The position numbers were made by a program, and so were the translations under genes. A DNA stretch of 40,785 nucleotides, taken from the NCBI GenBank assembly GCA_030645995.1, contig JAUSMU010000313.1:1-40785 (forward strand), written 5' to 3'. The DNA is from Gammaproteobacteria bacterium. GTDB taxonomy: Bacteria > Pseudomonadota > Gammaproteobacteria > Pseudomonadales > Pseudohongiellaceae. Position 1 is the stretch's first letter; every line of letters begins with the position of its first letter. The notes beneath the pieces were generated by a model. It was given only the letters and a program-made list of their open reading frames with translations, made no database searches and was not told the origin of the DNA. Below are positions 1-26,288 of this stretch, one piece after another.

Positions 1-127
1 TCACATTCGGTGGTGGTATCACGATGGAGTAGGCCTCGCCGTCGCCCGAGGGGGCGAAGTAGCCGTTTTCTTCCCAGTGTTTGTACCAGTGACTTTCGAT
101 CTGATTGGGTTGGTAAGTCTTGTCCAT
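1..127 (-). CDS. valS: Valine--tRNA ligase, N-terminal fragment (cut by window edge)
   Basis: Reading the minus strand from an ATG at 127 gives a 42-residue open frame that runs off the left edge. It begins [18 protein letters not shown] and ends in IPPPNV. This is the characteristic start of bacterial ValS: an opening that pairs an aspartate/glutamate with KTY, a tyrosine/tryptophan-rich helix, then the PPPNVTG stretch that leads to the HIGH-type ATP-binding motif, which lies outside the window. ValS charges tRNA-Val in the cytoplasm. It lies downstream of pepA on the same strand, the usual gammaproteobacterial neighbourhood, but the holC gene that commonly sits between them is absent here. 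The identification rests on the N-terminus only. Confidence 0.92.
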
Positions 128-183
128 TGAATGCTGCAACTATGATATCGGGTGGGTGTGAAATTGGCAGTGAGTATACCTCA

Positions 184-304
184 GCAGGAGCGGGCTGCGG
201 GCAAGTTCAGCGGTGACACGCCGTGAATACGTCCGTGTTGGCTCGCTTTCGCCATCCATGGCTCAAGACGGTCGCCGCTGAACTTGCCCGCAGCCCGCTC
301 TTGC
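184..304. repeat. Long inverted repeat in the pepA-valS gap
   Basis: Two arms, 189-213 and 275-299, are perfect reverse complements over 25 bases. Pairing continues outward to 184/304 with two mismatches and inward for a few more bases. The loop of about 60 bases contains the self-complementary core CCATCCATGG. The whole unit fills most of the 190-base gap between valS and pepA and codes for nothing recognisable. It has the look of an interspersed extragenic palindrome. On either strand it would form a long hairpin that could attenuate pepA-valS read-through or protect the pepA mRNA 3' end. Only one convincing copy is present in the window. Confidence 0.8.
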
Positions 305-317
305 GGGGCAAACTCAA

Positions 318-1805: not shown

Positions 1806-2072
1806 GCTAAGTATTTCCCTGATGACGAATGCCGGTGAATCAAGCGTTAGGTGCGCTTGGAAGTTGGTCACAATCCTAAAGATATTCAGTATGTTAAGCA
1901 ATAGACGAGGGCCGGACGGGTGCTCTCCAGGGTAAAGAAGTGTACTTATCAGGCGACGGTGATTAGAATTGGCGGCCTTATCGACGGGTGGATTGCCGAT
2001 GTCTGGCAACTGACAACAACACACACCATCCGCATGCCCTGTCGGGCCATTCACTCTTACAATGGGGTCTGT

Positions 2073-2513
2073 ATGCCGCGCGTCAAAATCAGCATGCCTG
2101 AAGTATTCCTGTTCACAATGCGTTATCCGGTCGGCATCAGTGATCTCAACTATGCCAAGCACTTGAACAGTGTGGCCATGGTGCACATCGTGCATGAGGC
2201 GCGCCTGCAGTTTCTGGCTAACCTGGGTTTCACAGAGGCCAACATTTTCGGGCTGGGCATGGTCGTGACCGATCTCGCGGTGGACTATCGTTCCGAGTCG
2301 TTTGCCAATGACCTGTTGATCATCGACGTTGGTGTGGGTCGCTTCAATCGCTATGGTTGCGACATATGTTTTCAAATTACCAATTCCGCACTCGACCGCG
2401 TCGTCTGCAACACCAAGATGGGCGTGGTTTTCTTCGATTTCGACAAGCACAAGATTGCGCCTGTCCCCAAGGCCTTCCGCGAATTGCTGGGTCAGAACGA
2501 GGACTCCCTCTGA
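2073..2513 (+). CDS. Hotdog-fold acyl-CoA thioesterase family protein (4HBT/YbgC type)
   Basis: A 146-residue single hotdog domain. The N-terminal part carries SDLNYAKHLNS, the variant of the 4HBT-type active-site loop (Asp then Asn/His on the long helix), followed by HEARLQFL and a C-terminal strand ending in VFFDF. The family hydrolyses acyl-CoA or acyl-ACP thioesters in the cytoplasm; the chain specificity cannot be read from sequence. The start at 2073 (MPRVKISM) lies just before the homologous region; a GGGG stretch a few bases upstream may act as its ribosome site. A longer frame reaching 1920 is open but not family-like. It ends 25 bases before lptF on the same strand, so it is probably co-transcribed with lptF-lptG. 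Confidence 0.85.
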   Translation: MPRVKISMPEVFLFTMRYPVGISDLNYAKHLNSVAMVHIVHEARLQFLANLGFTEANIFGLGMVVTDLAVDYRSESFANDLLIIDVGVGRFNRYGCDICFQITNSALDRVVCNTKMGVVFFDFDKHKIAPVPKAFRELLGQNEDSL

Positions 2514-2538
2514 GTAACGTCGGCGCCAAGGTTTCCCT

Positions 2539-3633
2539 GTGATCATATTCCGCTATCTGGGCAGACAGATTTTCCAGGTGATGGCCGCCGTCACGGTCAT
2601 CCTGCTGGTGGTCGCGATGATCAGTCGTTTCCTGGGCTATCTCAGTCAGGCAGTGGCTGGCGAAATTACCTCTGACATCCTGGCGTTGCTGATGCTCTAC
2701 CGGCTGCCGGAGTTCCTGCTCGTGATTCTTCCCTTTGCGCTGTTTCTCGGCATTCTGCTCGCCTATGGGCGCATGTATGCGGATAACGAAATGACGGTGC
2801 TCAGCGCTTGCGGTCTGAGCCAGAAGCGACTGCTGGCGTTGACCCTCATGTGCTCTGCCGTGGTGGCGATTGTGGTGGGGTTGCTGAGCTTGCAGATAGC
2901 GCCCTGGGGGCTGACGCGAACCGAACAGTTGATGAACAGCCAGGATGAGCTGACCGAGATTGATCTGATCGTTGCGGGCCAATTCCAGGAGTTCGACGAC
3001 GGTCTGCGCACCACCTATGCCGAGACAATTACAGGAGGCACGGCGGGACGCCAGCTCAACAAGACCTTTGTGGCCTGGCGGCGGCCAGATAGTGCGGAAG
3101 GCGAGTCCCCGCTGCGCATCATTGTTGCGGACACGGCTCGCCCGGTCATAGACGAGGACAGCGGGCGTCGCTTCATGCTGCTGGAAAATGGCTATCTGTA
3201 TGATGGCGTTCCCGGTCAGGCCGGTTATCTAGTGTCCCGTTTCGAACAGCAGGCATTGTTGATGCCCGAGCAGACGCGCATCGAGGAAGTGGTACGCGAG
3301 AAGTCGATGCCGACAACTCAGTTGTGGAATTCGCCTGAGCCGGAATCCCAGGCTGAGCTGCAGTGGCGCATTTCGGCGATCCTGCTGATTCCTGTGCTGG
3401 GTCTGATCGCTGTTCCCTTGAGCCGGGTCAATCCGCGTCAGGGGCGCTTCAGCAAGCTGGTGCCGGCGACGCTCCTGTATGCGGTTTACTACGTCTCATT
3501 GCAGATGGGCATGAATCTACTGGGCGAGGGGGCGATTCCCGCCACTGTGGGGCTATGGTGGGTACACATTCTGTTTATTGCGTTCGGGCTGGTGCTGCTG
3601 TTCGGGCTGCCTGGACGTCGGCGGAGGACGTGA
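2539..3633 (+). CDS. lptF: LPS export ABC transporter permease LptF
   Basis: A 364-residue inner-membrane permease. It has three N-terminal membrane segments (about residues 12-120), a periplasmic beta-jellyroll domain (about 130-265) and three C-terminal segments (about 270-360), the LptF/LptG (YjgP/YjgQ) architecture. With LptG and the ATPase LptB it pulls lipopolysaccharide out of the inner membrane and passes it to LptC-LptA. The N-terminus IIFRYLGRQIFQV is typical of LptF. Translation begins at a GTG at 2539, preceded by AAGG about eight bases upstream; no nearer ATG fits the homology. The TGA stop overlaps the lptG ATG by one base, so translation is coupled. Confidence 0.95.
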   Translation: MIIFRYLGRQIFQVMAAVTVILLVVAMISRFLGYLSQAVAGEITSDILALLMLYRLPEFLLVILPFALFLGILLAYGRMYADNEMTVLSACGLSQKRLLALTLMCSAVVAIVVGLLSLQIAPWGLTRTEQLMNSQDELTEIDLIVAGQFQEFDDGLRTTYAETITGGTAGRQLNKTFVAWRRPDSAEGESPLRIIVADTARPVIDEDSGRRFMLLENGYLYDGVPGQAGYLVSRFEQQALLMPEQTRIEEVVREKSMPTTQLWNSPEPESQAELQWRISAILLIPVLGLIAVPLSRVNPRQGRFSKLVPATLLYAVYYVSLQMGMNLLGEGAIPATVGLWWVHILFIAFGLVLLFGLPGRRRRT

Positions 3634-4706
3634 TGAGAAAAATCGACGCCTATATTCGCAACACAGTGGTTCTCTCCATGCTGGTCGTGATGGCGTTGAT
3701 GGGTAGCCTCGACTTTATTTTTACTCTGACCGATGAACTGAGTAGCAGCGTCGAAGCATATACAGCGGGGCAGGCGTTGTTCTTCACGTTGCGCATCATG
3801 CCCACCTCCATTTACGAGATGTTGCCTTTCACGGCTCTCGGAGGGGCGTTGATCGGGCTTGGCATTCTCGCCTCGCACAACGAACTGGTTGTCATGCAGG
3901 CGGCGGGTATCAGCACTGGGCGCATCGTTTGGGCTGTGATGAAGCCGACGATCGGGGTGATGCTGCTCAGTCTGGTGCTGGGTGAGTCGGTTGCACCCCG
4001 GCTGCAGCAGCGCGCGCAGAGCGATCTCGCCATCATCGAGAGCGGCGGGCTGGCGTTGAGTTCCACCGGCGGTGACTGGCGCAAGATCGGCGACGTCTTC
4101 ATTCACGTCAACGTGATCGAGCCAGGTGGTACGCGCTTGCAGGGCGTGACCCGCTATGTGCTGGACGAGGATCGTCGTGTTGCCAGCAGCAGTTTCGCTA
4201 CCGCTGCGGAGTACGTCGACGCCAATGGTGAAAGCTACTGGCTTCTCCACGATGTTCAGGAGACGGTGTTCGGAGAAGGAACGGTTACCCTCAACCATCT
4301 GGATAGCTTCGACTGGCGGGTGGACATGTCCCCGGAGTTGCTGAGTGTGTTGCTGGTGGAGCCGGAGCGACAGTCCATCTCGGGTCTTTACCGCTTTGCC
4401 AATTACTTCGAAAACGAAGGATTGGAGAGCAGTAGCTACTATCTCGCCTTCTGGAAGAAGTTGTTGCAGCCATTGGCGACTGCGTCACTGGTCTTGCTGG
4501 CGATCTCTTTTGTGTTTGGGCCGCTGCGCAGCGCCACCATGGGGTCGCGGATATTCGTCGCTATCAGCATCGGGCTGGTGTTCACGATCATGCAGCGGGT
4601 GATGGGGCCAGCGAGTCTGCTGTACGGGTTCAGCCCACTGGTGGCGGTTCTGGTGCCGATCGCGATTTGTTTGTTGCTGGGGATAGTGTTGTTGCGCCGG
4701 GTGTAA
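3633..4706 (+). CDS. lptG: LPS export ABC transporter permease LptG
   Basis: A 357-residue partner of LptF with the same plan: three membrane helices, a periplasmic jellyroll domain, then three helices. The N-terminus RKIDAYIRNTVV matches the LptG interface helix. The LptF-LptG heterodimer forms the cavity through which lipopolysaccharide enters the Lpt bridge. The ATG at 3633 shares its A with the lptF stop codon (TGATG), so the two are translated as a pair. The gene ends 27 bases from the convergent RDD gene. The frame is open further upstream inside lptF, but that translation is meaningless. Confidence 0.95.
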   Translation: MRKIDAYIRNTVVLSMLVVMALMGSLDFIFTLTDELSSSVEAYTAGQALFFTLRIMPTSIYEMLPFTALGGALIGLGILASHNELVVMQAAGISTGRIVWAVMKPTIGVMLLSLVLGESVAPRLQQRAQSDLAIIESGGLALSSTGGDWRKIGDVFIHVNVIEPGGTRLQGVTRYVLDEDRRVASSSFATAAEYVDANGESYWLLHDVQETVFGEGTVTLNHLDSFDWRVDMSPELLSVLLVEPERQSISGLYRFANYFENEGLESSSYYLAFWKKLLQPLATASLVLLAISFVFGPLRSATMGSRIFVAISIGLVFTIMQRVMGPASLLYGFSPLVAVLVPIAICLLLGIVLLRRV

Positions 4707-4733
4707 CAACAGGCTGTGGGAGCGGGCCGTTGT

Positions 4734-5291
4734 TCAGAACGGGAGCGCGCTCTTGGGCAGGACGATCACGCGGGTTCCTGAGAATTTGTCGTGCAGTGCA
4801 TCGCCATTGCGATCGATGTACAGCCACAGGTAGCCGATTCCGAAGCAGAAGAAGGCTGGCCACGCCAGCAGAAAGCGCAACACTCCTTGCCTCAGGCTCA
4901 TCAACTTCCCATCGACATTCACTGCCTTGATACGCCAGGCAATCATGCCCAGTGTCTGGCCGGTGCGCATCCAGAACCAGATGTAGAAGGTCGACGCGCT
5001 GAGCACCTCTCCTGTAAAGAGGATCACATCCAGCACGGGGTCCGTCTGCACGCGGCCATCCACCAGCTGGCTGGTATCCGCCCCAACGATGAATTGTAGC
5101 GCGAAGCCCATTGTCATCCAGATGGCTGCCACCAGAAACGCGTCGTACAGCAGAGCTGCCAGACGGCGCAGCAGCCCGGAGGAAACAGCTGCTTCCTGTT
5201 CTGCTGCTGCATCAGTCGATGCTTCGGTCGATGTTTTGATCGATGCTGCCGCACCGCTGTTTTCGTCCTGCTTATCGCGCGTTCTAGTCAT
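4734..5291 (-). CDS. RDD family membrane protein
   Basis: A 185-residue protein. A hydrophilic N-terminal tail (about 35 residues, rich in Ala, Ser, Thr, Asp and Glu) precedes RRLAALLYDAFLV, which carries the arginine-aspartate pattern that names the RDD family. Three to four hydrophobic segments follow, with a second conserved block around QTLGMIAWRIK. RDD proteins sit in the inner membrane; a few are linked to sodium/proton antiport, most have no known role. Only four bases separate its ATG from the pntB stop codon, so it is the last gene of the pntAA-pntAB-pntB operon. Co-expression with a proton pump is suggestive, but the function is unproven. Confidence 0.88.
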   Translation of the reverse strand: MTRTRDKQDENSGAAASIKTSTEASTDAAAEQEAAVSSGLLRRLAALLYDAFLVAAIWMTMGFALQFIVGADTSQLVDGRVQTDPVLDVILFTGEVLSASTFYIWFWMRTGQTLGMIAWRIKAVNVDGKLMSLRQGVLRFLLAWPAFFCFGIGYLWLYIDRNGDALHDKFSGTRVIVLPKSALPF

Positions 5292-5295
5292 GCCC

Positions 5296-6774
5296 TTACA
5301 GTTCCTTCACGGCCTGAATCAGCTCGTTGACGGCCTTCTGGCCATCGCCGAACAGCATGCGGGTGTTGTCGAGCAGGAACAGCGGGTTCTCCACTCCGGA
5401 GAAGCCTGTGCCACGGCCACGCTTGATCACGATGACGTTGTCGGACTGCTCGGCATTGAGGATCGGCATGCCGAACAGCGGGCTGCTCGGGTCATTCTTC
5501 GCAGCCGGGTTCACCACGTCGTTGGCTCCGATCACCAGCGTCACGGTGGTGTTCTGGAAGTCAGCGTTGATGTCTTCCATGTCATAGATCAGATCATAGG
5601 GGACGCCCGCTTCGGCCAGCAGCACGTTCATGTGCCCTGGCATGCGGCCCGCCACCGGGTGAATCGCGAACTTCACTTTCACGCCTTTTTCGATGAGCAA
5701 CTGCGTCAGTTCCCACACCTTGTGCTGGGCCTGGGCGACTGCCATGCCGTAGCCGGGGATGATCACAACCTGACTGGCATAGGCCATCATGATGCCGACG
5801 TCCTGACCCTGAATTTCCTTCATCGAGCCGCCGCCTTCCACTGCGCCTGCGCTGGCCACTTGAGTGGTGCCGAAGCCGCTGAAGAACACGTTGCTGACGG
5901 AGCGGTTCATGGCCTTGGCCATCAGGTGGGTCAGAAGGGTGCCCGCTGAACCAACCACGGTGCCAGCGATGATCATGGCAGCATTGCCCAGTACATAGCC
6001 TTCAAAACCCACGGCCAGACCGGTCAGAGCGTTGAATAGCGAGATGATCACCGGCATGTCTGCGCCACCCACGGGCACGGTGATGAACACGCCGAGGATC
6101 AGGGCCAGCGCAAAGAACACGACGATGGGCATCAGGTCGCCAGTGAAGAACACCGCGACACCGAAGCCGACCATCACCAGTGCCAGCACCAGATTGATCA
6201 GCTGCTGTTGTGGCAGCAGTTTGCTGGTGTTCAGTCGTCCATCCAGCTTCGCCCACGCGATGATACTGCCGCTGAAGGCGATGGTGCCGATGATGGCGCC
6301 CAGAATGGCGAGAATGGTGATGTCGGTGCCCATGGCCTCGGAGATGCTGGTCGGCGCGACATTCAGGGTTTCGAGACCGATTGCTCCCAGCAGACTGGCA
6401 GGCTCCGCTCCGGCGGCGACTTCGCCTTGTGCTTTCAGCAATTCCACGGCCGCGATGGTGGCTGCTGCGCCACCGCCCATGCCGTTGTACATGGCGATCA
6501 TTTGCGGCATGTTGGTCATCGCGACCTTCTTGCCGGTGACCCACGCATAGCCGCCGCCGATGGCGATGGCGATGATGATCAGGATGTAATTGGTGACGGC
6601 CTGTGGATTATCAGACAGTTCCGGCGCCAGGAAGGTCACCAGAGTGGCCAGCACCATGCCGACGCCGGCCCAGTGAATGCCGCGGCGCGCGGTCACGGGA
6701 GAACTCATCTGCTTGAGGCCCAGAATGAACAGCGCCGCTGCCAGGAAATAGGTTGCTTGAATGAGGATTCCCAT
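5296..6774 (-). CDS. pntB: NAD(P) transhydrogenase subunit beta PntB
   Basis: A 492-residue inner-membrane protein. Roughly the first 290 residues form about nine membrane helices (domain II, proton channel). The C-terminal part is the NADP(H)-binding domain III with the GYGMAVAQAQ dinucleotide loop, the HPVAGRMPGHMNVLLAEA block and the later VIKRGRGTGF segment. The enzyme couples hydride transfer from NADH to NADP+ to proton entry, and so supplies NADPH. Its length matches other PntB proteins. The ATG at 6774 directly abuts the pntAB stop codon, and a GGAGAGAAG ribosome site lies inside the end of pntAB. Confidence 0.96.
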   Translation of the reverse strand: MGILIQATYFLAAALFILGLKQMSSPVTARRGIHWAGVGMVLATLVTFLAPELSDNPQAVTNYILIIIAIAIGGGYAWVTGKKVAMTNMPQMIAMYNGMGGGAAATIAAVELLKAQGEVAAGAEPASLLGAIGLETLNVAPTSISEAMGTDITILAILGAIIGTIAFSGSIIAWAKLDGRLNTSKLLPQQQLINLVLALVMVGFGVAVFFTGDLMPIVVFFALALILGVFITVPVGGADMPVIISLFNALTGLAVGFEGYVLGNAAMIIAGTVVGSAGTLLTHLMAKAMNRSVSNVFFSGFGTTQVASAGAVEGGGSMKEIQGQDVGIMMAYASQVVIIPGYGMAVAQAQHKVWELTQLLIEKGVKVKFAIHPVAGRMPGHMNVLLAEAGVPYDLIYDMEDINADFQNTTVTLVIGANDVVNPAAKNDPSSPLFGMPILNAEQSDNVIVIKRGRGTGFSGVENPLFLLDNTRMLFGDGQKAVNELIQAVKEL

Positions 6775-7083
6775 TTATTTCTTCTCTCCAGCTGCGCCTT
6801 TCTTGTCGCTGGCCTTGAACATCTCCAGCATGCGTTCGGTCACCACATAGCCACCGACTGCGTTGCCAGCAGCGAGCAGTACGGCGATGAAGCCAATAGC
6901 TTGTTGTGTTGGATTCTCGGCGATACCGAGAGCAATCATCGCGCCTACCAGCACAATGCCGTGAACGAAGTTGGAGCCTGACATCAGCGGCGTATGCAGA
7001 ATAACCGGCACCTTACTGATGATCTCGAAGCCAGTGAATCCGGCGAGCATGAATATGTATAACGCGGCTAATCCTTCGATCAT
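6775..7083 (-). CDS. pntAB: NAD(P) transhydrogenase subunit alpha part 2 (PntAB)
   Basis: A 102-residue membrane protein corresponding to the C-terminal membrane part of the one-piece E. coli PntA. It has three to four hydrophobic helices with the conserved core FTGFEIISKVP, HTPLMSGSN and a basic, soluble tail (KKGAAGEKK). It belongs to the proton-conducting domain II together with PntB. A separate alpha-2 gene is the three-gene arrangement known from Rhodospirillum and many proteobacteria. Its ATG overlaps the pntAA stop by four bases and its stop codon touches the pntB start, so the subunits are translationally coupled. Confidence 0.95.
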   Translation of the reverse strand: MIEGLAALYIFMLAGFTGFEIISKVPVILHTPLMSGSNFVHGIVLVGAMIALGIAENPTQQAIGFIAVLLAAGNAVGGYVVTERMLEMFKASDKKGAAGEKK

Positions 7084-8213
7084 TTTGCACCCCCTTCCAC
7101 TTTATTCCTGACTGTCGCGTTGACGATCTCGCCACCATGGGTAACGAGACTGTCCTTGAGAATCTGGTCTTCCAGATCAATCGTGATCTTCCCATCTTTG
7201 ACCAGCAGGGCCAGCAGATTCAGCAGGTTTTTCGCATACAGCTCGCTCGCGTGGCCGCTGACGGTACTCGGCACGTTGAGAGGGCCGTAGATTTTCACGC
7301 GGTTGTGCAGAATGGTTTGATCGGGCTGCGTCAGTTCGCAGTTGCCGCCACCTTCAGCTGCCAAGTCGACGATGACCGAACCGCCTTTCATGCGCTCTAC
7401 CATCTCGCGGGTGATGATCTTTGGAGAGGGGCGTCCGGGAATTGCAGCAGTGGTGATCACGACATCGGCTGCCGCCACATGATTCGCCAGAATGGCCTGC
7501 TGTTGTGCCTTCTCTTCGGCGGTGAGCTCACGGGCATAGCCGCCTGTGCCTTCCGCTTTGATGTCGATGTCGACGAACTTGGCGCCCAGTGATTCGACTT
7601 GATCCTTCACCGCCGCCCGCACGTCATAGCCTTCGACGATGGCGCCGAGACGACGTGCTGTCGCAATGGCCTGCAATCCCGCAACGCCGGCGCCAATGAT
7701 CAGCACCTTGGAGGGGCGAACCGTACCGGCTGCCGTGGTCAGCATGGGGAAGAATTTGCCGAGCAGCGTGCTGGCGATGAGGACTGCCTTGTAACCGGCA
7801 ATGGAGGCTTGTGATGAGAGCGCGTCCATCGCCTGGGCTCTGGAAATTCGAGGAATCATCTCCATCGAGAATGCGGAGATGTTCTTTTCCTGCAAGCGTT
7901 TGAAGCGATCCGTGTCCGAGTAGGGATTGAGGTAGCCAATGACGATCGTTCCCGGCTTCAGTTGCCCGATCTGCTCGTTCGACAGAGGGTTGACGGTCAG
8001 CAGGATGTCGGCGCTGTTGTATAGAGCGGTCTCATCACTGACGATATCCGCCCCTGTGTAGTCGCTGTCGCCGTGCCCCGCTGTTTCGCCTGCGCCGCTC
8101 TGAATGCTGACGCTGATTCCTAGTGCTGTGAGCCGTTTGACGACATCCGGCACCATGGCGACTCGTTGCTCCCCCACACGTACCTCTTTCGGCACGCAAA
8201 CCCTTATCGTCAT
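7080..8213 (-). CDS. pntAA: NAD(P) transhydrogenase subunit alpha part 1 (PntAA, NAD-binding)
   Basis: A 377-residue soluble subunit (domain I) that binds NAD(H) at the cytoplasmic face. The N-terminus PKEVRVGEQRVAMVP is the alanine dehydrogenase/PNT signature. The Rossmann segment VLIIGAGVAGLQAIATARRLGA follows in the middle, with the YDVRAAVKDQVESLGA block after it. The ATG at 8213 was preferred over an in-frame one at 8270 because homology starts at MTIRVCVPKE and a GAGGGG ribosome site lies about eight bases upstream. It heads the operon pntAA-pntAB-pntB-RDD. The AT-richer stretch 8214-8379, between it and the upstream gene, should carry the promoter. Confidence 0.95.
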   Translation of the reverse strand: MTIRVCVPKEVRVGEQRVAMVPDVVKRLTALGISVSIQSGAGETAGHGDSDYTGADIVSDETALYNSADILLTVNPLSNEQIGQLKPGTIVIGYLNPYSDTDRFKRLQEKNISAFSMEMIPRISRAQAMDALSSQASIAGYKAVLIASTLLGKFFPMLTTAAGTVRPSKVLIIGAGVAGLQAIATARRLGAIVEGYDVRAAVKDQVESLGAKFVDIDIKAEGTGGYARELTAEEKAQQQAILANHVAAADVVITTAAIPGRPSPKIITREMVERMKGGSVIVDLAAEGGGNCELTQPDQTILHNRVKIYGPLNVPSTVSGHASELYAKNLLNLLALLVKDGKITIDLEDQILKDSLVTHGGEIVNATVRNKVEGGAK

Positions 8214-8379
8214 TACATCCACCCCTCGTGAACTGCTCTTAAAAAGTGCGCGGAGTATACCACTGATCACAAAAGGTAATGAATTGCAGGAAGCATCAAG
8301 TCTCTTGCTTAAGGCTGATTTTGTCGTATTTCAGAAGCTTCTTTGCGGGAAATCATTAGTGGATGACGTGATCCGACTT

Positions 8380-8973
8380 TTACTGAGCGTTTGGCTCGAT
8401 ATCAAGATCCAGTGACAGATCGTTCGGATCCTCATCCTTGGGGACCACGAGTTCGACTGTGGCGGTGGGCTCTGAGGGTTTCTCGGGCGTGACCAGTTGT
8501 TGACGCAGGGACTCAATTTCGGCCGTCAAACCCTGAGTGAGCTGCGAAGTGGCTTCGTTCTGAGCGATCCGACTGTTGTATTCCGGATCGAGTTCGGTGA
8601 TGTGATAAACCTTGTTGAAGGTTGACTTGTAGTCCTTCTTGCAGAGGATTGTAAACGTGGGCTCTTCGTAAATGGTGCGATATTCGTTGAGACGGGCGTA
8701 CAACACCTCTGTGCAGGTTGGGTCCCGCAAGGCCTCGACGACAGCCAGTTTCAGGAATGGGTGAAGGTTTGCCGCGCTCTCTGGCAGCCACATGCGCGTG
8801 GGGTCGGTCGTGACTGCCACTTCCGCCCCCGCTTCGGCTTCAGGGGCGACTTTTGCCTCGACGTCTGCTTCTGCGGCCAGTGCGGCATCGCCCGCCAGCG
8901 CCCATATGAGGACGAGTGATCGGGGAATGAATGTGCGGCAAATGTCGGGCAGGATTCTCATGCTTGAGGTCAT
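8380..8973 (-). CDS. Secreted acidic protein of unknown function
   Basis: A 197-residue protein not recognised as a known family. A basic, hydrophobic N-terminus (up to about residue 33, ending in GDAALAA) looks like a Sec signal peptide. It is followed by an Ala/Glu/Val-rich low-complexity linker (about 34-55), a central domain with two cysteines (in DPTCTEVL and TILCKKDY) that could form one disulfide, a helical Gln/Glu/Ser-rich stretch (TSQLTQGLTAEIESLRQQL) and a strongly acidic tail. The start is uncertain: ATG at 8973 or 8961 (MRILPD), neither with a clear ribosome site. It is upstream of pntAA on the same strand and divergent from the citramalate synthase gene. A periplasmic location is inferred. 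Confidence 0.6.
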   Translation of the reverse strand: MTSSMRILPDICRTFIPRSLVLIWALAGDAALAAEADVEAKVAPEAEAGAEVAVTTDPTRMWLPESAANLHPFLKLAVVEALRDPTCTEVLYARLNEYRTIYEEPTFTILCKKDYKSTFNKVYHITELDPEYNSRIAQNEATSQLTQGLTAEIESLRQQLVTPEKPSEPTATVELVVPKDEDPNDLSLDLDIEPNAQ

Positions 8974-9110
8974 CGGCAGGCAGTGGAAATCCTTGAGTGG
9001 TTTTGAGCAGGTTGATTTTCTGCGGGGGCATGCGGGGTTATGAATGGCGGCGTTATTTGTTAGAATCGGCTCCCCTCAACGCTGCCCGGCAGCCGGATGA
9101 ACACAGTCTT

Positions 9111-10649
9111 ATGAATACGAGAACAACTGCCCGCCACATCAAATTGCTCGATACGACGCTGCGCGATGGTGAACAGACTCAGGGAGTCTCCTTTGCCGCC
9201 AAGGAAAAGGTGAATATAGCGCGTGCGTTGCTGCAGTCTCTGAAGGTGGATCGCATTGAGGTTGCCTCAGCCCGGGTTTCGGAAGGCGAGAAGAAGGCGG
9301 TCATCGATATCAATACCTGGGCCGCCCAGGAGGGCTTTCTGGACAAAGTGGAGGTGCTCGGCTTTGTCGACCACAAGAAGAGTGTGGACTGGGTCGTCGA
9401 AACCGGCGGGCGGGTGATCAATCTGCTGGCCAAGGGCAGTGAGAAACATTGCCGTGAACAACTGGGTCGCACGCTGGATCAGCACATTCAGGATATCTGT
9501 CAGACCGTCGCCTATGCAAAAGAGCAGGGGCTGCGGGTCAACGTCTATCTGGAGGACTGGTCCAACGGCTATCAGGACAGCCGCGCTTATGTGTTCGGGT
9601 TGCTGGAGGGGATTCAGAGTATCGGCATCGCCGATTTCATGTTGCCCGATACGCTTGGGGTCATGACACCGGACGAAGTGTTTGCCGCGATGACCGATAT
9701 GATCACTCGCTTCCCTGAACTGGAATTTGATTTTCACCCTCACAATGACTATGGCCTGGCCACCGCAAACGTCATGGCGGCAGTGAAGGCGGGCATCAAC
9801 ACGATTCACTGTACCGTCAACTGTTTGGGCGAGCGTGCTGGTAATGCCTCGCTGGCCGAAGTGGCGGTAGTGCTTAAAGACAAGATGGGAATGTCACTTT
9901 CCATTGATGAGACCCGCATCGGTCTTCTCAGCCGCATGGTGGAGAATTTCTCCGGCAAATGGGTTGCGGCCAATGCACCGATCGTTGGTGCCGACGTGTT
10001 TACGCAGACGGCAGGCATTCATGCCGATGGCGACCTCAAGGGTGGGCTCTATATCACCGCACTGCGCCCCGAGCGTTTTGCCCGCAAGCGTATTTATGCG
10101 CTGGGCAAGATGAGCGGCAAGGCCTCGTTGGCCAACAACCTGGAGGAGCTGGGGCTGACGCTATCAGTAGAGGATCAGGCCAAGGTGCTCAAGCGCATCG
10201 TCAAGCTCGGCGACTCCAAGGAAATCATCACAGTCGATGATCTGCCCTTCATCATTGCCGATGTGCTGGAGAGCCGCGATTACAACTACACCCGCTTGCT
10301 CAATTGCTACATCAACAGCGGGTTGGATGTGGAAAGCACGGCGAGCATTCGCGTGAATATCGAGGGCAAGGAATACAGTGGCTCGGGTTCCGGAAATGGC
10401 GGTTTCGCAGCCTTCATCGATGCCGTCAGCAGGATTCTGGAAACACGAAACTTCCTGATGCCCGCTCTGATTGATTACGAAGTGCATATTCCGCGCGGCG
10501 GCAATACCAGTGCGCTGACCGAGTGCATCATCACCTGGAGCAACGACGGCAAGGAGCTGAAAACCCGAGGCGTGGATTCCAATCAAGTGCTTGCGGCCGT
10601 GAAGGCAACGCTGAGGATGATCAACATCAGAATGCACGCGCAAGCTTGA
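9111..10649 (+). CDS. cimA: (R)-citramalate synthase, Leptospira CimA type
   Basis: A 512-residue member of the isopropylmalate/citramalate synthase family. The TIM barrel carries LRDGEQ (Arg18, Asp19), the HPHND metal site (His209, His211) and His304; the C-terminal regulatory domain holds a Ser-Gly-rich loop (SGSGSGNGGF). Compared from memory with the characterised Leptospira interrogans citramalate synthase, the pyruvate-pocket residues Leu81, Leu104, Tyr144, Glu146 and Thr179 appear here as Leu83, Leu106, Tyr146, Glu148 and Thr181 at a constant offset of two. That favours pyruvate plus acetyl-CoA giving citramalate, the first step of threonine-independent isoleucine synthesis, rather than LeuA activity. 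The ATG at 9111 fits the homology. It converges on the LeuB-like gene with a 16-base gap. Confidence 0.82.
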   Translation: MNTRTTARHIKLLDTTLRDGEQTQGVSFAAKEKVNIARALLQSLKVDRIEVASARVSEGEKKAVIDINTWAAQEGFLDKVEVLGFVDHKKSVDWVVETGGRVINLLAKGSEKHCREQLGRTLDQHIQDICQTVAYAKEQGLRVNVYLEDWSNGYQDSRAYVFGLLEGIQSIGIADFMLPDTLGVMTPDEVFAAMTDMITRFPELEFDFHPHNDYGLATANVMAAVKAGINTIHCTVNCLGERAGNASLAEVAVVLKDKMGMSLSIDETRIGLLSRMVENFSGKWVAANAPIVGADVFTQTAGIHADGDLKGGLYITALRPERFARKRIYALGKMSGKASLANNLEELGLTLSVEDQAKVLKRIVKLGDSKEIITVDDLPFIIADVLESRDYNYTRLLNCYINSGLDVESTASIRVNIEGKEYSGSGSGNGGFAAFIDAVSRILETRNFLMPALIDYEVHIPRGGNTSALTECIITWSNDGKELKTRGVDSNQVLAAVKATLRMINIRMHAQA

Positions 10650-21798: not shown

Positions 21799-22131
21799 TC
21801 ATTCGCGCTGGATGAACAGCTCGGGATGCAGAGCGCCGTCATAGTAATTCTCGCCGCTCGATAGTGCCGTCTGTATCTGCTCAAGAGATTCCTTCGAGTC
21901 TGCGGTAATGCTCCAGCGCTGCAGCTTCGCGGTTTTGTCGGCGTTCCCCGGTAGATTGACAATGCTTACCCGGCCATCGCCCTCAAGCTCGAGACGCCAC
22001 TCGTAAATATTGGCTTCTGCGTCGGCCCGAAAGGGAGTCCCGAAGACAGAGATAAGCATGGCAAGGGTCGTGCTGACCTCCGATTGGCAGGTGTGACTGC
22101 CGTGATTGGAGGTTGAGGTTTCGTTGCTCAT
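21799..22131 (-). CDS. Hypothetical protein upstream of multicopper oxidase
   Basis: A 110-residue protein from ATG at 22131 (MSNETSTSNHG). No family recognised. The N-terminal quarter is Ser/Thr/Asn/His-rich, and a predicted helix (STTLAMLISVFGTPF) follows. After that comes a beta-rich segment with IYEWRLELEGDGRVSIVNLPG, then a Gln/Ser helix; it ends in a beta strand (ELFIQRE). No obvious signal peptide with this start. It is 52 bases upstream of the multicopper oxidase on the same strand, so co-transcription is likely. It diverges from the Sel1-AAA+ gene across 152 bases. The frame remains open to 22206, but that extension is Asn/Tyr-rich and less convincing. Confidence 0.55.
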   Translation of the reverse strand: MSNETSTSNHGSHTCQSEVSTTLAMLISVFGTPFRADAEANIYEWRLELEGDGRVSIVNLPGNADKTAKLQRWSITADSKESLEQIQTALSSGENYYDGALHPELFIQRE

Positions 22132-22283
22132 GATAGTGTCGCCCCAAAAAGTTCCAGCATTGGAAAGTGGTTCTGGATAATACGAGAAATTGCAGTTTTT
22201 TAGCACCCTTACTTTAGAAGAGCGTTGCCTCCAAAGTCAGTTCTCGGCTAGAGTTCGGGGCACACCTCCGAGAATGCTCCCTG

Positions 22284-24788
22284 ATGTCCAGTCACCGTTA
22301 CCGTGATCTTTCCCTGCACGAACTCCTCGAGCTCGCGCAAGGGCGCGCGGGGCACAAGCCTGATGCCCGCGCTCAGTATAATCTCGGGCTGCGCTATGAG
22401 CGTGGCGAAGGGGTTTCCCGCAACGACACCATGGCGGCGCAGTGGTTCGAGCGCGCTGCAGAGGCAGGTGATACGGATGCACAACGTCTGCTTGCCTTCG
22501 CTTACCTGCACGGCATTGGCGTCCCAAAGAACGAGTCGGAGGGCATTCGGCGCCTGCGCATTGCAGCAGAGTGGGGTGACGCGGTGGCCCGTCGTCAGCT
22601 TGGTTTCCGTTATGTCACGGGGGCCTCGGTTCTCAAGGACGAGGTCGAAGGTGTGCACTGGTTTCAGCTGGCTGCCGAGCAGGGTGACGACATGGCTCAG
22701 TACAATCTCGCCTACGCCTTTGCGCACGGCAGCGGTGTTGAGATGGACCAGGCTCGGGCCATTCACTGGCTGACGCTGGCCGCGCAGCAGGGCCTGCCGG
22801 CGGCGCAGTGCGGTCTTGGCGCTGTCTATGAACAGGGGCTCGGCGTGCCCGTAGACTATAAGGCCAGTGCCAGATGGACGCGGCAGGCGGCGGAGCAAGG
22901 TTATCCCGAGGCCTGCAGCAACCTGGGCTGGCTGTACGAAAACGGTCTCGGGGTGGAGAAAGACCTGCAACAGGCGCGGCACTGGTACGAGGTGGCGATA
23001 CACAAAGATTATGCCGAGGCTCAGCAGCGCCTTGCGCACTTGAGCGGCATGCCCAGCGGTTCGCAGCCAGAGCTGGCACGACCACTGGCGCGCAACGACG
23101 CCATCAATGAGTATCTGGAAGCGGCGTTCGCCGGTGTCGTCGGGCTGGACATGGTGAGGCAGGAGATTTTCCGCCAGGCCAGTTACATTCACGTGCAGCA
23201 ACTGCGGGCGAAGCAAGGGATGCCTGTGCCCGACTGGCCATCACGTCATCTCGTGTTCAGCGGCAATCCTGGCACAGGCAAGACGATGGTCGCCCGCGTT
23301 ATCGCTGGGCTGTATCTCAAGCTCGGCATCCTCAAAACGGACAGGATTGTGGAAACTGATCGTGCCGGACTCGTTGGTTCCCACATCGGCGAGACCGCGC
23401 TGAAGACTCGGGCGCTGGTCGAATCCGCCCTCGGTGGTATTTTGTTCATCGACGAGGCTTACGCACTGGCGAGGGCCACCCAGCAGGACTTTGGCCGCGA
23501 GGCCATCGAGACTCTGCTGAAAATGATGGAGGACCATCGCGATAATCTGGTCGTCATCGTGGCTGGCTATGGCGCCGAGATGGACGAATTCATTCAATCG
23601 AATCCTGGATTGTCCTCGCGCTTCAATCGCTTCCTCCATTTCTCCAATTACACCCCAGATGAGCTGCTGTCGATCTTTCAGGGCTTTTGCCGTCAGCATG
23701 GGTATGCAGTCAGCGACTCGATTCAGCACGGCTTGAAGCGCATATTCGCGCGGGAGATTCAGGCCCGGCGGGAGCACTTCGGTAATGCCCGCTACGTGCG
23801 CAACCTTTTCGAAAAGGTGCTGGAGGCCCACGCCCAGCGCGTATATGCCTTGGCCGAGGCGTCGGCGCATGAGTTGGGGACGATTCTTCCAGTCGATATT
23901 GAAAGTGCTCTGGGCGAATCGCTTGCCGACCAGGACGGTGTAGCCGAGAACTATGCGACCGCGCTGGCGAAACTCGACGCTCTCGTGGGTCTGCAGCGCG
24001 TCAAACAACAGGTGCGGCGCCTGTGCAGCTTTGTGCAGGTGCAGAGCGAGCGCGCGAGTGCGGGATACAAGACGGCGGCTGGATTCTCGCAACATCTGGT
24101 ATTCACCGGCAATCCGGGCACGGGCAAGACGGTCGTGTCACGCATCGTGGCCGATCTCTACTTCAATCTCGGTATCTTGCCCTCCAGCCGCATTGTCGAG
24201 GTGGATCGCTCCGGGTTGGTGGCGCAATATGTTGGCCAGTCGGCACTGAAAACCCGGGAGGTCATCGAGTCTGCCTTGGGAGGTGTACTGTTCATCGACG
24301 AGGCTTACGCACTCGTCAAAGAGGGGGATGAGCGGGACTTTGGCCACGAGGTTATCGATACCCTGCTCAAGGCGATGGAGGACTATCGCGACCAGCTGAC
24401 CGTGATTGTGGCCGGCTATCCCGAACCGATGGCGCGGTTCATCGACAGTAACCCCGGCCTGCGGTCGAGGTTCAACCATTACATCGAATTCGAGGATTAT
24501 CAGCCGGAGGAATTGCTGAGCATCTATGAACGCTTTGTGCGGGACTCCGAGTACGTGTTGGAGGAGGGAACCCACCCGGCTCTGCAGGAGAGTCTGCGGC
24601 AGCTGTTTGCGCAGGGTCGTACCGCTGACAATGGCCGCTTCGTCCGTAATCTTTTCGAGCGGACTGTCGAGTTGCATGCCGAGCGGGTGGCGAAGCTGGA
24701 ACACGCCTCAGGTGCGTTGCTGAATACTCTGGCGTTGGTAGATGTGGAAGAGGCATTGAAGGAGATGCTTGCCGAGGCAAAACTCTAG
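22284..24788 (+). CDS. Sel1-repeat protein with two CbbX-like AAA+ ATPase domains
   Basis: An 834-residue protein. Residues 30-245 are six Sel1 repeats in a strict 36-residue register (each with an NLGxxYxxGxGV-like hairpin and AxxWFxxAAEqG). A linker leads to AAA+ domain 1: Walker A GNPGTGKT (327-334), Walker B LFIDEAYA (387-394), arginine finger SRF (Arg446). AAA+ domain 2 has Walker A at 609-616, Walker B at 669-673, and Arg727/Arg729. Both domains resemble CbbX/SpoVK/EccA ATPases (VGxxIGETALKTR, QSNPGLSSRF). Pore-loop residues differ: LVGSHIG in domain 1 and LVAQYVG in domain 2. Sel1 repeats usually recruit proteins, so a client-remodelling machine is likely. No rubisco genes lie nearby. 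Cytoplasmic; no signal. Confidence 0.92.
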   Translation: MSSHRYRDLSLHELLELAQGRAGHKPDARAQYNLGLRYERGEGVSRNDTMAAQWFERAAEAGDTDAQRLLAFAYLHGIGVPKNESEGIRRLRIAAEWGDAVARRQLGFRYVTGASVLKDEVEGVHWFQLAAEQGDDMAQYNLAYAFAHGSGVEMDQARAIHWLTLAAQQGLPAAQCGLGAVYEQGLGVPVDYKASARWTRQAAEQGYPEACSNLGWLYENGLGVEKDLQQARHWYEVAIHKDYAEAQQRLAHLSGMPSGSQPELARPLARNDAINEYLEAAFAGVVGLDMVRQEIFRQASYIHVQQLRAKQGMPVPDWPSRHLVFSGNPGTGKTMVARVIAGLYLKLGILKTDRIVETDRAGLVGSHIGETALKTRALVESALGGILFIDEAYALARATQQDFGREAIETLLKMMEDHRDNLVVIVAGYGAEMDEFIQSNPGLSSRFNRFLHFSNYTPDELLSIFQGFCRQHGYAVSDSIQHGLKRIFAREIQARREHFGNARYVRNLFEKVLEAHAQRVYALAEASAHELGTILPVDIESALGESLADQDGVAENYATALAKLDALVGLQRVKQQVRRLCSFVQVQSERASAGYKTAAGFSQHLVFTGNPGTGKTVVSRIVADLYFNLGILPSSRIVEVDRSGLVAQYVGQSALKTREVIESALGGVLFIDEAYALVKEGDERDFGHEVIDTLLKAMEDYRDQLTVIVAGYPEPMARFIDSNPGLRSRFNHYIEFEDYQPEELLSIYERFVRDSEYVLEEGTHPALQESLRQLFAQGRTADNGRFVRNLFERTVELHAERVAKLEHASGALLNTLALVDVEEALKEMLAEAKL

Positions 24789-24902: not shown

Positions 24903-26288
24903 CTACTCAGCGGCCACTGAGCGCTGCTTCGCGGCTTCACGCTGTGCCAGAATCTCATCGTAACCCTGCTGGTCAAGATGGGTCACGGCAATCCAGGCGT
25001 GAGTCATTTCATCGGCGGTGCGGCTGCCGTTCACGACCCAGAAATCCGGATCCGGATTGTTCGGGTTGTTGGAGGTGTTGTCGTACCACTGCTTGATGAT
25101 CAACACGGCACCGGTTGGCAGCAACGGAGCGACGTCCGGTTGGTACAGGTGGCTGTGGTGCCAGGTGGCGCTCCAGTTGGAGATCTGGCTGATCTGCTCT
25201 GTGCGGCCGGTGGCTGGATAGAAGATCTCCAGTGATGCCTGACGCATACGCAGGTGGCCGTGTGGCTGGAAGCTGTCGATGCGCACGGGGTGATCGAAGG
25301 AGTGAATCCCCTGAGTCATCGCTGTTGCATTCGGAGGAACGATCAGTTCGCCCTGATCCAGACGGTAAGACTTGAGATCCTGCTTGTATTTGACCTGATT
25401 CTCATAGCCTTCGGGATGCAGCCAGACGCCGATCTCGACGACATTGTCCTCGATCACAGTACCGGGTGCCGTTGCACCGACACCACCGGGGAAGAGGTGA
25501 ATATCCCAGCGAATACGCGCGTTCTCGGGCAGCGTGCGGCACACACCTTCTGGTGCAATCTCGCCCCATTTGCCCATCGCATACTCAGTGAACATCCCGT
25601 ACTCTTCGTACTCGCCTTCCTCATTCAGGGTTTCCACGTAGGAGTTGGCATGATGCACAACTGCCTTCGCATTGCCTGATGGCTTCACCTGAATTGCCTT
25701 GATGCAGCGGTCACTGGTCAGGCCGGTCAACACATAGGGACGGTGCCACATGTCATTACCCAGTGCGGGCACATCGATCGGTGCAGAATCCAGCACCAGG
25801 CTGGGCTCGCCGAATTGCGGCGCGAAACTCCATTGATCTGGATCGGGCAGATTGGCAACAGGATGTGAGCGGTCGCCCCAATCGCCTTCCGGCGCTCCTT
25901 GCTGAACCCAGGCCACTATGGTGTCGATTTCGCTCTGCTCCAGTCTCCAATCGCCTTGCAGTTCTTGAATGCCGATGCCGTGATCGTAGGCATAGGGGGG
26001 CATTTCCCTGTTTTCAACGCGATACTGAATGAGCGGTGCCCAAGGACGGACCTGCTCATAATTCGTGAGCTGCATGGGGCCTACGCCGCCCTCACGGTGA
26101 CAGACCACACAGTTGTCCGTGATGATCTGGGCAACGTGATCGGCATACGTCACCTCGCCTGTGTTGATCGACAAGGACGACTGGGCCTGAGCCTGGGCCT
26201 CTCCCGCCATCCCCAGAATGGCGAGCACTGCTAGGCCTAATGCGCCTTTGCTTTTGATTTGCCTACTGCAATACGGATTTATTCTCAT
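24903..26288 (-). CDS. Cytochrome c joined to a PHM-like copper monooxygenase
   Basis: A 461-residue exported protein. The Sec signal ends around AQAQA (31-36). A cytochrome c segment has heme site CVVCH (60-64) and a following MPP (Met96, possible axial ligand). The C-terminal part resembles the peptidylglycine alpha-hydroxylating monooxygenase/dopamine beta-monooxygenase copper domains: His212-His213 and His264 (site one), HGH at 343-345 (site two) and a HHSH cluster at 377-380. Such proteins occur mainly in environmental bacteria, with unknown substrates; the heme could replace ascorbate as electron donor. The ATG at 26288 has AAGGAG upstream. Convergent with the Sel1-AAA+ gene. Confidence 0.82.
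   Translation of the reverse strand: MRINPYCSRQIKSKGALGLAVLAILGMAGEAQAQAQSSLSINTGEVTYADHVAQIITDNCVVCHREGGVGPMQLTNYEQVRPWAPLIQYRVENREMPPYAYDHGIGIQELQGDWRLEQSEIDTIVAWVQQGAPEGDWGDRSHPVANLPDPDQWSFAPQFGEPSLVLDSAPIDVPALGNDMWHRPYVLTGLTSDRCIKAIQVKPSGNAKAVVHHANSYVETLNEEGEYEEYGMFTEYAMGKWGEIAPEGVCRTLPENARIRWDIHLFPGGVGATAPGTVIEDNVVEIGVWLHPEGYENQVKYKQDLKSYRLDQGELIVPPNATAMTQGIHSFDHPVRIDSFQPHGHLRMRQASLEIFYPATGRTEQISQISNWSATWHHSHLYQPDVAPLLPTGAVLIIKQWYDNTSNNPNNPDPDFWVVNGSRTADEMTHAWIAVTHLDQQGYDEILAQREAAKQRSVAAE

What the first reader, a model, noticed from the sequence alone, without database searches (positions are those of the whole stretch)
22284..24788. Sel1 repeats fused to tandem CbbX-like AAA+ ATPases
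Six Sel1 repeats in strict 36-residue register are joined to two AAA+ domains of the rubisco-activase/SpoVK/EccA type. The domains are similar but not equivalent: the aromatic pore residue is kept in domain 2 (LVAQYVG) and replaced by Ser-His in domain 1 (LVGSHIG). No rubisco, type VII secretion or sporulation gene is near. The best guess is a scaffolded client-remodelling machine with a new target.
Basis: partly seen in the sequence, partly recalled or inferred. Interest (0 to 1): 0.7.

Follow-up and report, generated by a model that had tools for sequence, protein, structure and literature searches.

The report
Sel1-armed double-ring AAA+ remodelling protein
A bacterial protein joins a helical docking arm to two ATP-driven motor modules of a family that rescues specific enzymes; it is a real, conserved but patchily distributed new combination of known parts whose partner protein is still unknown.

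Summary
ORF 22284-24788(+) encodes 834 aa: six Sel1 repeats in exact 36-residue register (residues 28-243), a low-confidence linker and two AAA+ modules of the SpoVK-CbbX-EccA clade. Both modules keep every ATPase motif examined and are under purifying selection (dN/dS about 0.07). I found the same Sel1-AAA-AAA protein in 16 genomes: 3 of 14 in the window's genus and 13 Burkholderiales. The asymmetry conserved in 16 of 16 is Ala/Ser (D1) versus Arg (D2) two residues before the invariant arginine finger. Both domains fall outside the CbbX clade and are probably sisters; some other tandem proteins seem to have duplicated separately. No rubisco match in 6 of 16 carriers, including the window's, but 10 of 13 Burkholderiales carriers have one (base rate unmeasured). 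No neighbour is shared across the family. Best reading: a stand-alone two-ring client-remodelling chaperone with Sel1 recruitment and an unidentified client; a new variant of a known kind. NCBIfam models would misname it SpoVK because two sub-threshold domain scores add up.

The parts
22284..24788 (+). Sel1(x6)-AAA-AAA gene, 834 aa
   Evidence: ORF, 5 families; 16 full-length members, the others at 58-99% identity; dN/dS 0.075
22365..23012 (+). six Sel1 repeats, residues 28-243, 36 aa each (starting at 22365, 22473, 22581, 22689, 22797, 22905)
   Evidence: Pfam PF08238; helices of the AlphaFold2 model; repeats printed
23049..23093 (+). linker, residues 256-270, probably disordered
   Evidence: pLDDT under 50; lowest conservation of the parts compared, 0.44
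23109..23918 (+). AAA+ domain 1 with lid, residues 276-545
23262..23285 (+). D1 Walker A GNPGTGKT, residues 327-334
   Evidence: invariant in the 13 rows of A3; K and T 16 of 16
23382..23384 (+). D1 pore-loop position, His367 (Tyr in 13 of 16 members)
   Evidence: aligned to the CbbX Tyr
23451..23456 (+). D1 Walker B Asp390-Glu391
   Evidence: 16 of 16
23613..23621 (+). D1 Ser444-Ser445-Arg446: Arg446 is the invariant arginine finger; 444 is Ala/Ser in 16 of 16 D1
23946..24767 (+). AAA+ domain 2 with lid, residues 555-828
24108..24131 (+). D2 Walker A GNPGTGKT, residues 609-616
   Evidence: K and T 16 of 16
24228..24230 (+). D2 pore-loop Tyr649
   Evidence: Tyr in 16 of 16
24297..24302 (+). 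D2 Walker B Asp672-Glu673
   Evidence: 16 of 16
24462..24470 (+). D2 Arg727-Ser728-Arg729: 727 is Arg in 16 of 16 D2; 729 is the invariant finger
21799..22206 (-). divergent 135-aa ORF 77 bp upstream; beside the gene in the 3 genus carriers, function unknown, probably not a general partner
   Evidence: no family; 88% and 69% identical copies in L009 and L010; no tblastn match at E 1e-3 in the 13 Burkholderiales loci

Best explanation
The gene encodes a stand-alone two-ring AAA+ remodelling chaperone of the SpoVK-CbbX-EccA clade. Six Sel1 repeats form a solenoid arm that docks a particular client, or client complex, through a flexible linker. The two AAA+ modules, probably made by duplication within this clade, stack as two hexameric rings. 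Both rings bind and hydrolyse ATP. Tyrosine pore loops (D2 always; D1 too in most relatives) transiently pull a flexible segment of the client and so open, activate or disassemble it, without degrading it. In the window's genus D1 has His in place of the pore Tyr, so pulling there should rest mainly on D2, with D1 a gating or assembly ring. Shown: architecture, motifs, conservation, phylogeny, distribution. Inferred: hexamers, stacking, threading, Sel1 as client receptor. Unknown: the client.
For: Each domain alone matches CbbX and EccA1 chains of the PDB. The model aligns to CbbX at Z 26.7 (D2, rmsd 4.7, 276 aligned) and 26.1 (D1, rmsd 4.2, 272 aligned), to Sel1 proteins at Z 24-27, and over both domains to Cdc48/p97 and Rix7 at Z about 18 with rmsd 7-12. 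Clade signatures (GY at sensor 1, Asn before the finger, sensor-2 Arg) and Walker A/B residues are in 16 of 16 D1 and 16 of 16 D2. D1 is as constrained as D2 (dN/dS 0.062 and 0.082 against L010), so D1 is not decaying. Characterised members of the clade are dedicated chaperones with variable N-terminal domains, and the authors found no peptidase association (PMC10659427, abstract, section 7 and passages read). In CbbX, Y114A of pore loop 1 keeps ATPase but loses activase function (PMC5437159, passages read).
Against: No client, partner gene or oligomer was shown. No neighbour is shared across the family. Gene presence is patchy (3 of 14 in the genus, 5 of 26 and 2 of 5 in two Burkholderiales genera), which suits an accessory rather than a housekeeping chaperone. 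Sel1 repeats could anchor or oligomerise the protein rather than bind a client. pTM of the model is only 0.48, so the placing of the three parts is unknown. 'No degradation' is weakened by a relative: a Streptomyces beta-helix tandem protein has an S8 peptidase gene directly downstream (L136).
Confidence: 0.6

Rival explanations
1. Accessory conflict or stress module carried on mobile or variable islands (for example anti-phage), in which Sel1 senses or recruits and the AAA+ rings act on an invader or toxin.
For: Patchy presence. 5 of 13 Burkholderiales loci have a tRNA gene within 3 kb of the gene, at three different tRNA sites. L012 lies beside phage structural and lysis genes, judged by eye. 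A PIN-domain gene is near it in L126, with an 88% similar ORF in L127. In G009 the same locus carries a deletion scar without the gene. Weak IetA matches (84 bits). Related AAA+ genes occur on phages, plasmids and viral contigs.
Against: Of 10 proteins near carriers (5) or single-AAA relatives (5), the one clear PADLOC match is an HNH protein beside the Methylibium relative (82 bits to a type IV restriction model). No S8 protease partner of the IetAS type among the 20 window proteins scanned. On 77 viral-contig loci no ORF with this AAA carries Sel1. GC3 of the gene (0.715) lies within the range of nine other window genes (0.607-0.761), though its GC (0.603) is the highest of the ten. No tRNA in the window nor in L009 and L010.
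Confidence: 0.16
2. A rubisco activase or helper: in autotrophic carriers it remodels rubisco, for example form II rubisco without CbbQO.
For: Rubisco large subunit in 10 of 16 carriers, 10 of 13 Burkholderiales. In 4 of these 10 (G424, G833, G679, G745) I saw no CbbX or CbbQ in the fetched stretch round the rubisco gene. Clade kinship with CbbX.
Against: 6 of 16 carriers gave no rubisco match, among them the 3 of the window's genus, which are 91-100% complete; for the other three (G426, G553, G829) completeness is not told and G829 is small (1.7 Mb). Six tested non-carriers of the window's genus lack it too. 6 of the 10 rubisco-bearing carriers have a CbbX-type or CbbQ gene beside it. Both domains lie outside the CbbX clade. 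In the 10 carriers the gene and rubisco are on different contigs or over 1 Mb apart. The base rate of rubisco in non-carriers could not be measured.
Confidence: 0.06
3. An output component of a signalling pathway: a receiver-domain response regulator controls the AAA+ machine.
For: In both carriers of one genus (G679, G745) a receiver-domain gene lies directly upstream on the same strand (75% identical proteins; Pfam Response_reg), in G745 also a PAS-GGDEF gene. A chemoreceptor gene is divergent in L011 and L102. In L125-L127 ORFs similar to receivers and histidine kinases (26-39%) lie a few kb away on the other strand.
Against: Only 2 of 16 carriers have the adjacent receiver; the ones in L125-L127 lie beyond a tRNA cluster, are not orthologues of it and look like a pho-type pair (by eye). 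Nothing of the kind was recognised in the 3 window-type loci, though not every ORF there was scanned.
Confidence: 0.08
4. D1 is a dead, structural ring and only D2 works.
For: D1 lacks the Arg two residues before the finger in 16 of 16, and in the window's genus the pore Tyr.
Against: Walker A, Walker B, sensor 1, the invariant Arg446 and sensor-2 Arg are intact in 16 of 16 D1. The position of Ser444 is also Ser in 8 of 13 other single-domain relatives and 3 of 19 rows that I labelled CbbX, so Arg is not needed there. D1 is the more conserved domain (134 of 270 invariant columns against 118 of 274).
Confidence: 0.1

Closest known systems
SpoVK (Bacillus; MurG chaperone) and SpoVK-like ATPases
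   Same: Best NCBIfam model for each domain (270 and 269 bits); clade motifs
   Different: Two AAA+ domains, Sel1 arm, Gammaproteobacteria and Burkholderiales; each domain is under the SpoVK cut-off of 423 and only the sum (532) passes
CbbX, red-type rubisco activase (3SYK, 3SYL, 3ZUH)
   Same: Same domain fold, 37-38% identity per domain, pore motif in D2
   Different: Outside the CbbX clade; no rubisco match in the window's genome; Sel1 arm; two AAA+ modules
EccA of type VII secretion (9LUR)
   Same: Helical-repeat N-terminus followed by a clade AAA+ domain; EccA1 is the best PDB sequence match of D2
   Different: Sel1 rather than TPR, two AAA+ domains, no T7SS family among the 20 window proteins scanned
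Right-handed beta-helix + tandem AAA+ proteins (Streptomyces plasmids, L136; G711, L087)
   Same: Variable N-terminal scaffold plus two clade AAA+ domains
   Different: Beta-helix instead of Sel1; their two domains pair with each other in the tree (99/96 and 92/66), so the tandem probably arose separately
Sel1 + single AAA+ protein of G358 (L094)
   Same: Sel1 repeats fused to one clade AAA+ domain
   Different: One AAA+ domain; its domain does not group with either family domain (long branch, unsure)
Cdc48/p97, Afg2/Drg1, Rix7 (two-ring AAA+)
   Same: Two AAA+ modules in one chain; the model aligns over both
   Different: Different AAA clade, about 18-22% identity at rmsd 7-12, other N-domains; resemblance is of work, not of membership

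Membership tests
SpoVK-CbbX-EccA higher-order clade (PMC10659427) | GY at sensor 1 | tested here: met
   16 of 16 in D1 and D2
[quoted passage not shown]
   Asn440/Asn723 16 of 16; the paper says 4 residues upstream, here the invariant Arg is 6 downstream and the variable position 4, so which Arg the authors mean is unsure
SpoVK-CbbX-EccA higher-order clade (PMC10659427) | sensor-2 arginine present | tested here: met
   Arg503 and Arg506 and equivalents 16 of 16
CbbX rubisco activase | groups with CbbX in a tree | tested here: not met
   separated by a branch 99/95; TIGR02880 scores 215 and 224 per domain against cut-off 459, while a CbbX-group protein scores 536
CbbX rubisco activase | rubisco in the same genome | tested here: not met
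   no match in the window's genome; 6 of 16 carriers without
CbbX rubisco activase | RuBP-binding site | not tested
   no residue list at hand
SpoVK | short N-terminal domain, sporulating Firmicutes only | tested here: not met
   two AAA+ domains, Sel1 arm; carriers are Gammaproteobacteria and Burkholderiales by record titles
EccA | TPR N-terminus | tested here: not met
   N-terminus is PF08238 Sel1; the paper also allows a beta-helix
EccA | type VII secretion genes alongside | tested here: not met
   none among the 20 window proteins scanned; the rest of the genome was not searched for T7SS
IetAS defence | IetA model match and adjacent subtilisin-like protease (recalled) | tested here: not met
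   84 bits to one PADLOC model, NCBIfam 79 against cut-off 510; no peptidase S8 among the 20 window proteins scanned
Sel1 repeat proteins | PF08238 over cut-off | tested here: met
   175.9 against 30.7 bits
Two-ring (type II) AAA+ machines | two AAA+ modules per chain | tested here: met
Two-ring (type II) AAA+ machines | stacked hexamers | not testable with these tools
   no complex prediction or experiment

The most novel reading that the evidence does not exclude
A distinct family of bacterial two-ring remodelling ATPases whose rings were made by a fresh duplication inside the SpoVK-CbbX-EccA clade and whose Sel1 arm delivers a client not yet known for this clade. Several other tandem proteins of the clade seem to have built a second ring independently, so the clade would be a place where two-ring machines evolve again and again, each with another docking arm.
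Probability: 0.42. Interest if true: 0.6.

Novelty: new variant of a known kind. Interest (0 to 1): 0.42.

Why it matters
Known members of this AAA+ clade rescue or activate one particular enzyme (rubisco, MurG) or serve one secretion system. A family with a new docking arm and two AAA+ modules points to an enzyme or complex in these Proteobacteria that needs such help and has not been recognised. The His/Tyr difference at the D1 pore between close and distant members is a natural experiment on what a first ring does. It is also an annotation trap: the two domains together pass the SpoVK and EccA cut-offs that neither passes alone.

Tried and rejected
Pore-tyrosine loss as a family feature: rejected, 13 of 16 D1 keep Tyr. 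I first took Ser444 as a lost arginine finger. Rejected: Arg446 is Arg in 77 of 77 domains compared, and position 444 is Ser in 8 of 13 other single-domain relatives.

Conserved neighbourhood: ORFs of 90 aa or more outside the gene were compared over all 16 loci, in seven local groups (flanks 0.4-22 kb, short in several). Between groups only 26-39% matches among ABC ATPases, receivers and histidine kinases were printed (up to 8 pairs per group pair shown), no orthologous neighbour. Within groups: a receiver gene in G679/G745, a chemoreceptor in L011/L102, a fumarase-like gene (named by eye) in L125/L127. The output was cut in the middle; one search repeats the comparison.

Mobile carriage: no plasmid record at 60% identity or more (1410 records matched, 2 covering 80% or more of the query, both Streptomyces beta-helix proteins). 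12 phage records matched, searched with the AAA part only. 77 viral-contig loci, no AAA ORF with Sel1; Sel1 was sought with a model made from the window's own repeats.

Independent duplication of other tandems: five proteins pair D1 with their own D2, but in the wider quick tree L091 and L139 do not, and the second and third domains of L088, L089 and L093 group across proteins, so those share an older duplication.

Literature: 'Sel1 + CbbX + AAA+', 'Sel1 + SpoVK' and 'CbxX + Sel1' gave 0 papers. 'Sel1 repeat + AAA ATPase + fusion + bacteria' gave 1, on peroxisomes. Two wider searches gave nothing on this fusion in the listings. The library is open-access only, and a word search of PMC10659427 found no Sel1, so 'not described' holds only for these searches.

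Structure searches: the listed rows were Sel1 and related repeat proteins, CbbX and other AAA+.
Full report
OBSERVATION. ORF 22284-24788(+) starts with ATG and gives 834 aa. Pfam finds Sel1 repeats (5 stretches pass on their own), two AAA domains and two AAA_lid_6. The AlphaFold2 model (mean pLDDT 85, pTM 0.48, 13 sequences) has helix pairs starting at residues 28, 64, 100, 136, 172 and 208 and a cap helix at 244, hence six repeats in exact 36-residue register, then a low-confidence linker 256-270 and two AAA+ modules. The gene is under strong purifying selection: dN/dS 0.075 over 834 codons against the 91% identical L010; Sel1 0.074, D1 0.062, D2 0.082. Its GC3 (0.715) is within the range of nine other window genes, its GC (0.603) the highest of the ten.

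FAMILY AND DISTRIBUTION. Full-length Sel1-AAA-AAA proteins turned up in 16 genomes. In the window's genus: 3 of 14, found among 57 relatives searched. From the scan of genome contigs: Curvibacter delicatus (66%) and two Burkholderiales MAGs (60%, 59%), plus two loci at 99% and 91% that I take for the two other genus carriers, by identity and, for the first, contig length. In samples: 4 of 399 genomes of the Curvibacter family, 4 of 399 of its order with Curvibacter counted again, 5 of 26 of its genus with Curvibacter counted again, 2 of 5 of another genus, both already in the family sample. A sample of 369 genomes of the window's class (37 with any match at E<=1e-60; the matches returned as loci were read, the rest sit in frames too short) and one of 398 of its phylum gave only the window's own genome. 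One genome of the class sample (G358) has Sel1 with a single AAA. Identity to the window protein is 58-99%. The gene is therefore accessory and patchy in two groups of Proteobacteria. In G009, a genus member without it, the first 228 residues of the flanking cytochrome-like gene lie beside remnants of the multicopper oxidase (residues 75-104 and 421-474): a deletion scar at the site. This shows that the site is unstable; it does not prove that G009 once had the gene. G009 and the window's genome are draft assemblies of hundreds of contigs.

THE TWO DOMAINS. Across 16 D1 and 16 D2, the Walker A and Walker B residues, sensor-1 GY, Asn-Pro-Gly, the arginine finger (446/729) and the sensor-2 arginines are invariant. 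The pore aromatic is Tyr in 16 of 16 D2 and 13 of 16 D1; the three His are the window's genus. The asymmetry that is conserved in 16 of 16 is two residues before the finger: Ala (13) or Ser (3) in D1, Arg in D2. In other members that position is Arg in 16 of 19 rows that I labelled CbbX (by length and kinship; one was checked against the CbbX model) but Ser in 8 of 13 other single-domain rows, so it does not mark a dead domain. D1 is slightly the more conserved of the two. In CbbX, changing the pore tyrosine to alanine leaves ATPase but abolishes remodelling (PMC5437159, passages read). By analogy, D1 of the window's genus may have lost grip but not ATPase; this is inference.

PHYLOGENY. In a tree of 36 domains, family D1 and D2 are each one clade (100/100 and 100/99) and are sisters at 83/89. 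A branch of 99/95 parts the 28 rows that hold the family from 8 rows: four CbbX, two CbbX-related singles and both domains of a viral-contig tandem protein. A wider quick tree of 69 domains also gave one clade each for D1 and D2 but did not resolve their sisterhood. In the five other tandem proteins of the 36-row tree, D1 and D2 pair with each other (from 92/66 to 100/100), which suggests separate duplications. Against this, in the 69-row tree the two domains of L091 and of Calothrix L139 do not pair, and the second and third domains of three other proteins (L088, L089, L093) group across proteins, so those share an older duplication. Gene conversion between two halves would also look like a recent duplication, and several branches are long. 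The Sel1 plus single-AAA protein L094 does not group with the family, but it is a long branch. NCBIfam's SpoVK model scores each domain at 270 and 269 bits, under its cut-off of 423; only the sum, 532, passes, and the EccA model (241 and 253 alone, 487 together, cut-off 467) passes by the same route. A name 'SpoVK' or 'EccA' from automatic annotation would be an artefact of that.

CONTEXT. In the window the gene stands alone between a divergent 135-aa ORF of no known family (behind it a multicopper oxidase) and a convergent cytochrome-c-like gene. Around it are molybdenum hydroxylase, MATE and ABC transporter, NAD(P) transhydrogenase and leucine-pathway-like genes. No orthologous neighbour is shared between the seven local groups into which the 16 loci fall (some flanks are short). 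Local regularities: a receiver-domain gene directly upstream in both carriers of one genus, a divergent chemoreceptor in two Curvibacter-type genomes, and a tRNA within 3 kb in 5 of 13 Burkholderiales loci at three different sites.

RUBISCO. The window's genome has no rubisco large-subunit match; neither have the two other genus carriers nor six tested non-carriers of the genus. Unexpectedly, 10 of 16 carriers do, all Burkholderiales. The three remaining carriers without (G426, G553, G829) are of untold completeness. By sequence character (my reading) six genomes (G424, G679, G745, G830, G833, G844) have form II; G1058 and G1116 have two form I-like and one form II, G1144 two form I-like; G425 has a CbbX-type gene beside it and so is probably red-type. 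Beside the rubisco gene G425 has a CbbX-type ATPase and G1144, G1116, G1058, G844 and G830 have CbbQ (one protein of each of the six supported by Pfam). In G424, G833, G679 and G745 I saw none in the stretch fetched; for G679 and one G745 locus the contig is under 10 kb. In the ten carriers the gene itself lies on another contig or over 1 Mb from rubisco. I could not measure how common rubisco is among non-carriers, so the 10 of 13 may only reflect the autotrophic habit of these groups. Because at least the three window-type carriers lack rubisco, it cannot be the general client.

MECHANISM. The best-supported picture is a two-ring remodelling chaperone: Sel1 arm for recruitment, ATP-driven pulling by tyrosine pore loops, no protease part in the chain. 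Confidence 0.6 for the kind of machine, with the client unknown. Delerue et al. define the clade, call its known members dedicated chaperones, and report variable N-terminal domains (TPR, beta-helix, beta-prism, helicase) and no peptidase association (PMC10659427; abstract, section 7 and passages read). A Sel1 arm fits that pattern and a word search finds none in that text. One relative seen here, the Streptomyces beta-helix tandem protein, does have an S8 peptidase gene next to it.

VERDICT. Real, conserved and not described under the searches I could run, but assembled from known parts in a clade known for swapping its N-terminal domain. New variant of a known kind; interest 0.42.

Noticed in passing
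window 24903-26288(-) and copies listed: A cytochrome-c-like 461-aa protein has 2 to 6 matches at E<=1e-80 in each of 14 genus genomes: mostly copies about 78-89% identical to the window one, plus a more distant copy of about 50% in many genomes; some are adjacent divergent pairs (G013:C16, G000:C244). Reason for the multiplication unknown.
   Followed up: partly
L128 (G009) 9430-10346: Deletion scar at the orthologous locus: half a cytochrome-like gene abuts two fragments of the multicopper oxidase gene; no Sel1-AAA-AAA gene and no 135-aa ORF found there.
   Followed up: yes
window 21799-22206(-): 135-aa ORF without any family match, divergent from the Sel1-AAA-AAA gene and present beside it in the three genus carriers (69-88% identical).
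   Followed up: partly
L087, L136, L142, L143, L145, L162: Other multi-AAA+ proteins of this clade (beta-helix or other N-termini; three domains in viral-contig L162), of which five look like independent duplications in the tree.
   Followed up: partly
L097 (G621) 3-9269: A clade AAA+ protein of 426 aa lies in a run of five same-strand ORFs with 707, 298, 556 and 1058 aa proteins; the three of these scanned (707, 556, 1058 aa) had no PADLOC match. Possibly a conflict-type operon.
   Followed up: partly
L236 and L238 against L234 and L240: Among Curvibacter-type genomes form II rubisco is followed by CbbQ in two (a VWA, CbbO-like gene confirmed in L234) but no CbbQ was seen at that site in two others.
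   Followed up: partly
L136 (Streptomyces anthocyanicus plasmid) 2906-7545: A beta-helix plus tandem AAA+ protein is followed by an S8 peptidase gene, a possible exception to the reported lack of peptidase partners in this clade.
   Followed up: no
L138 (Methylibium petroleiphilum plasmid RPME01) 1-7097: A single-AAA clade member lies between a Sir2-family gene and an HNH, type IV restriction-like gene on a conjugative plasmid.
   Followed up: no
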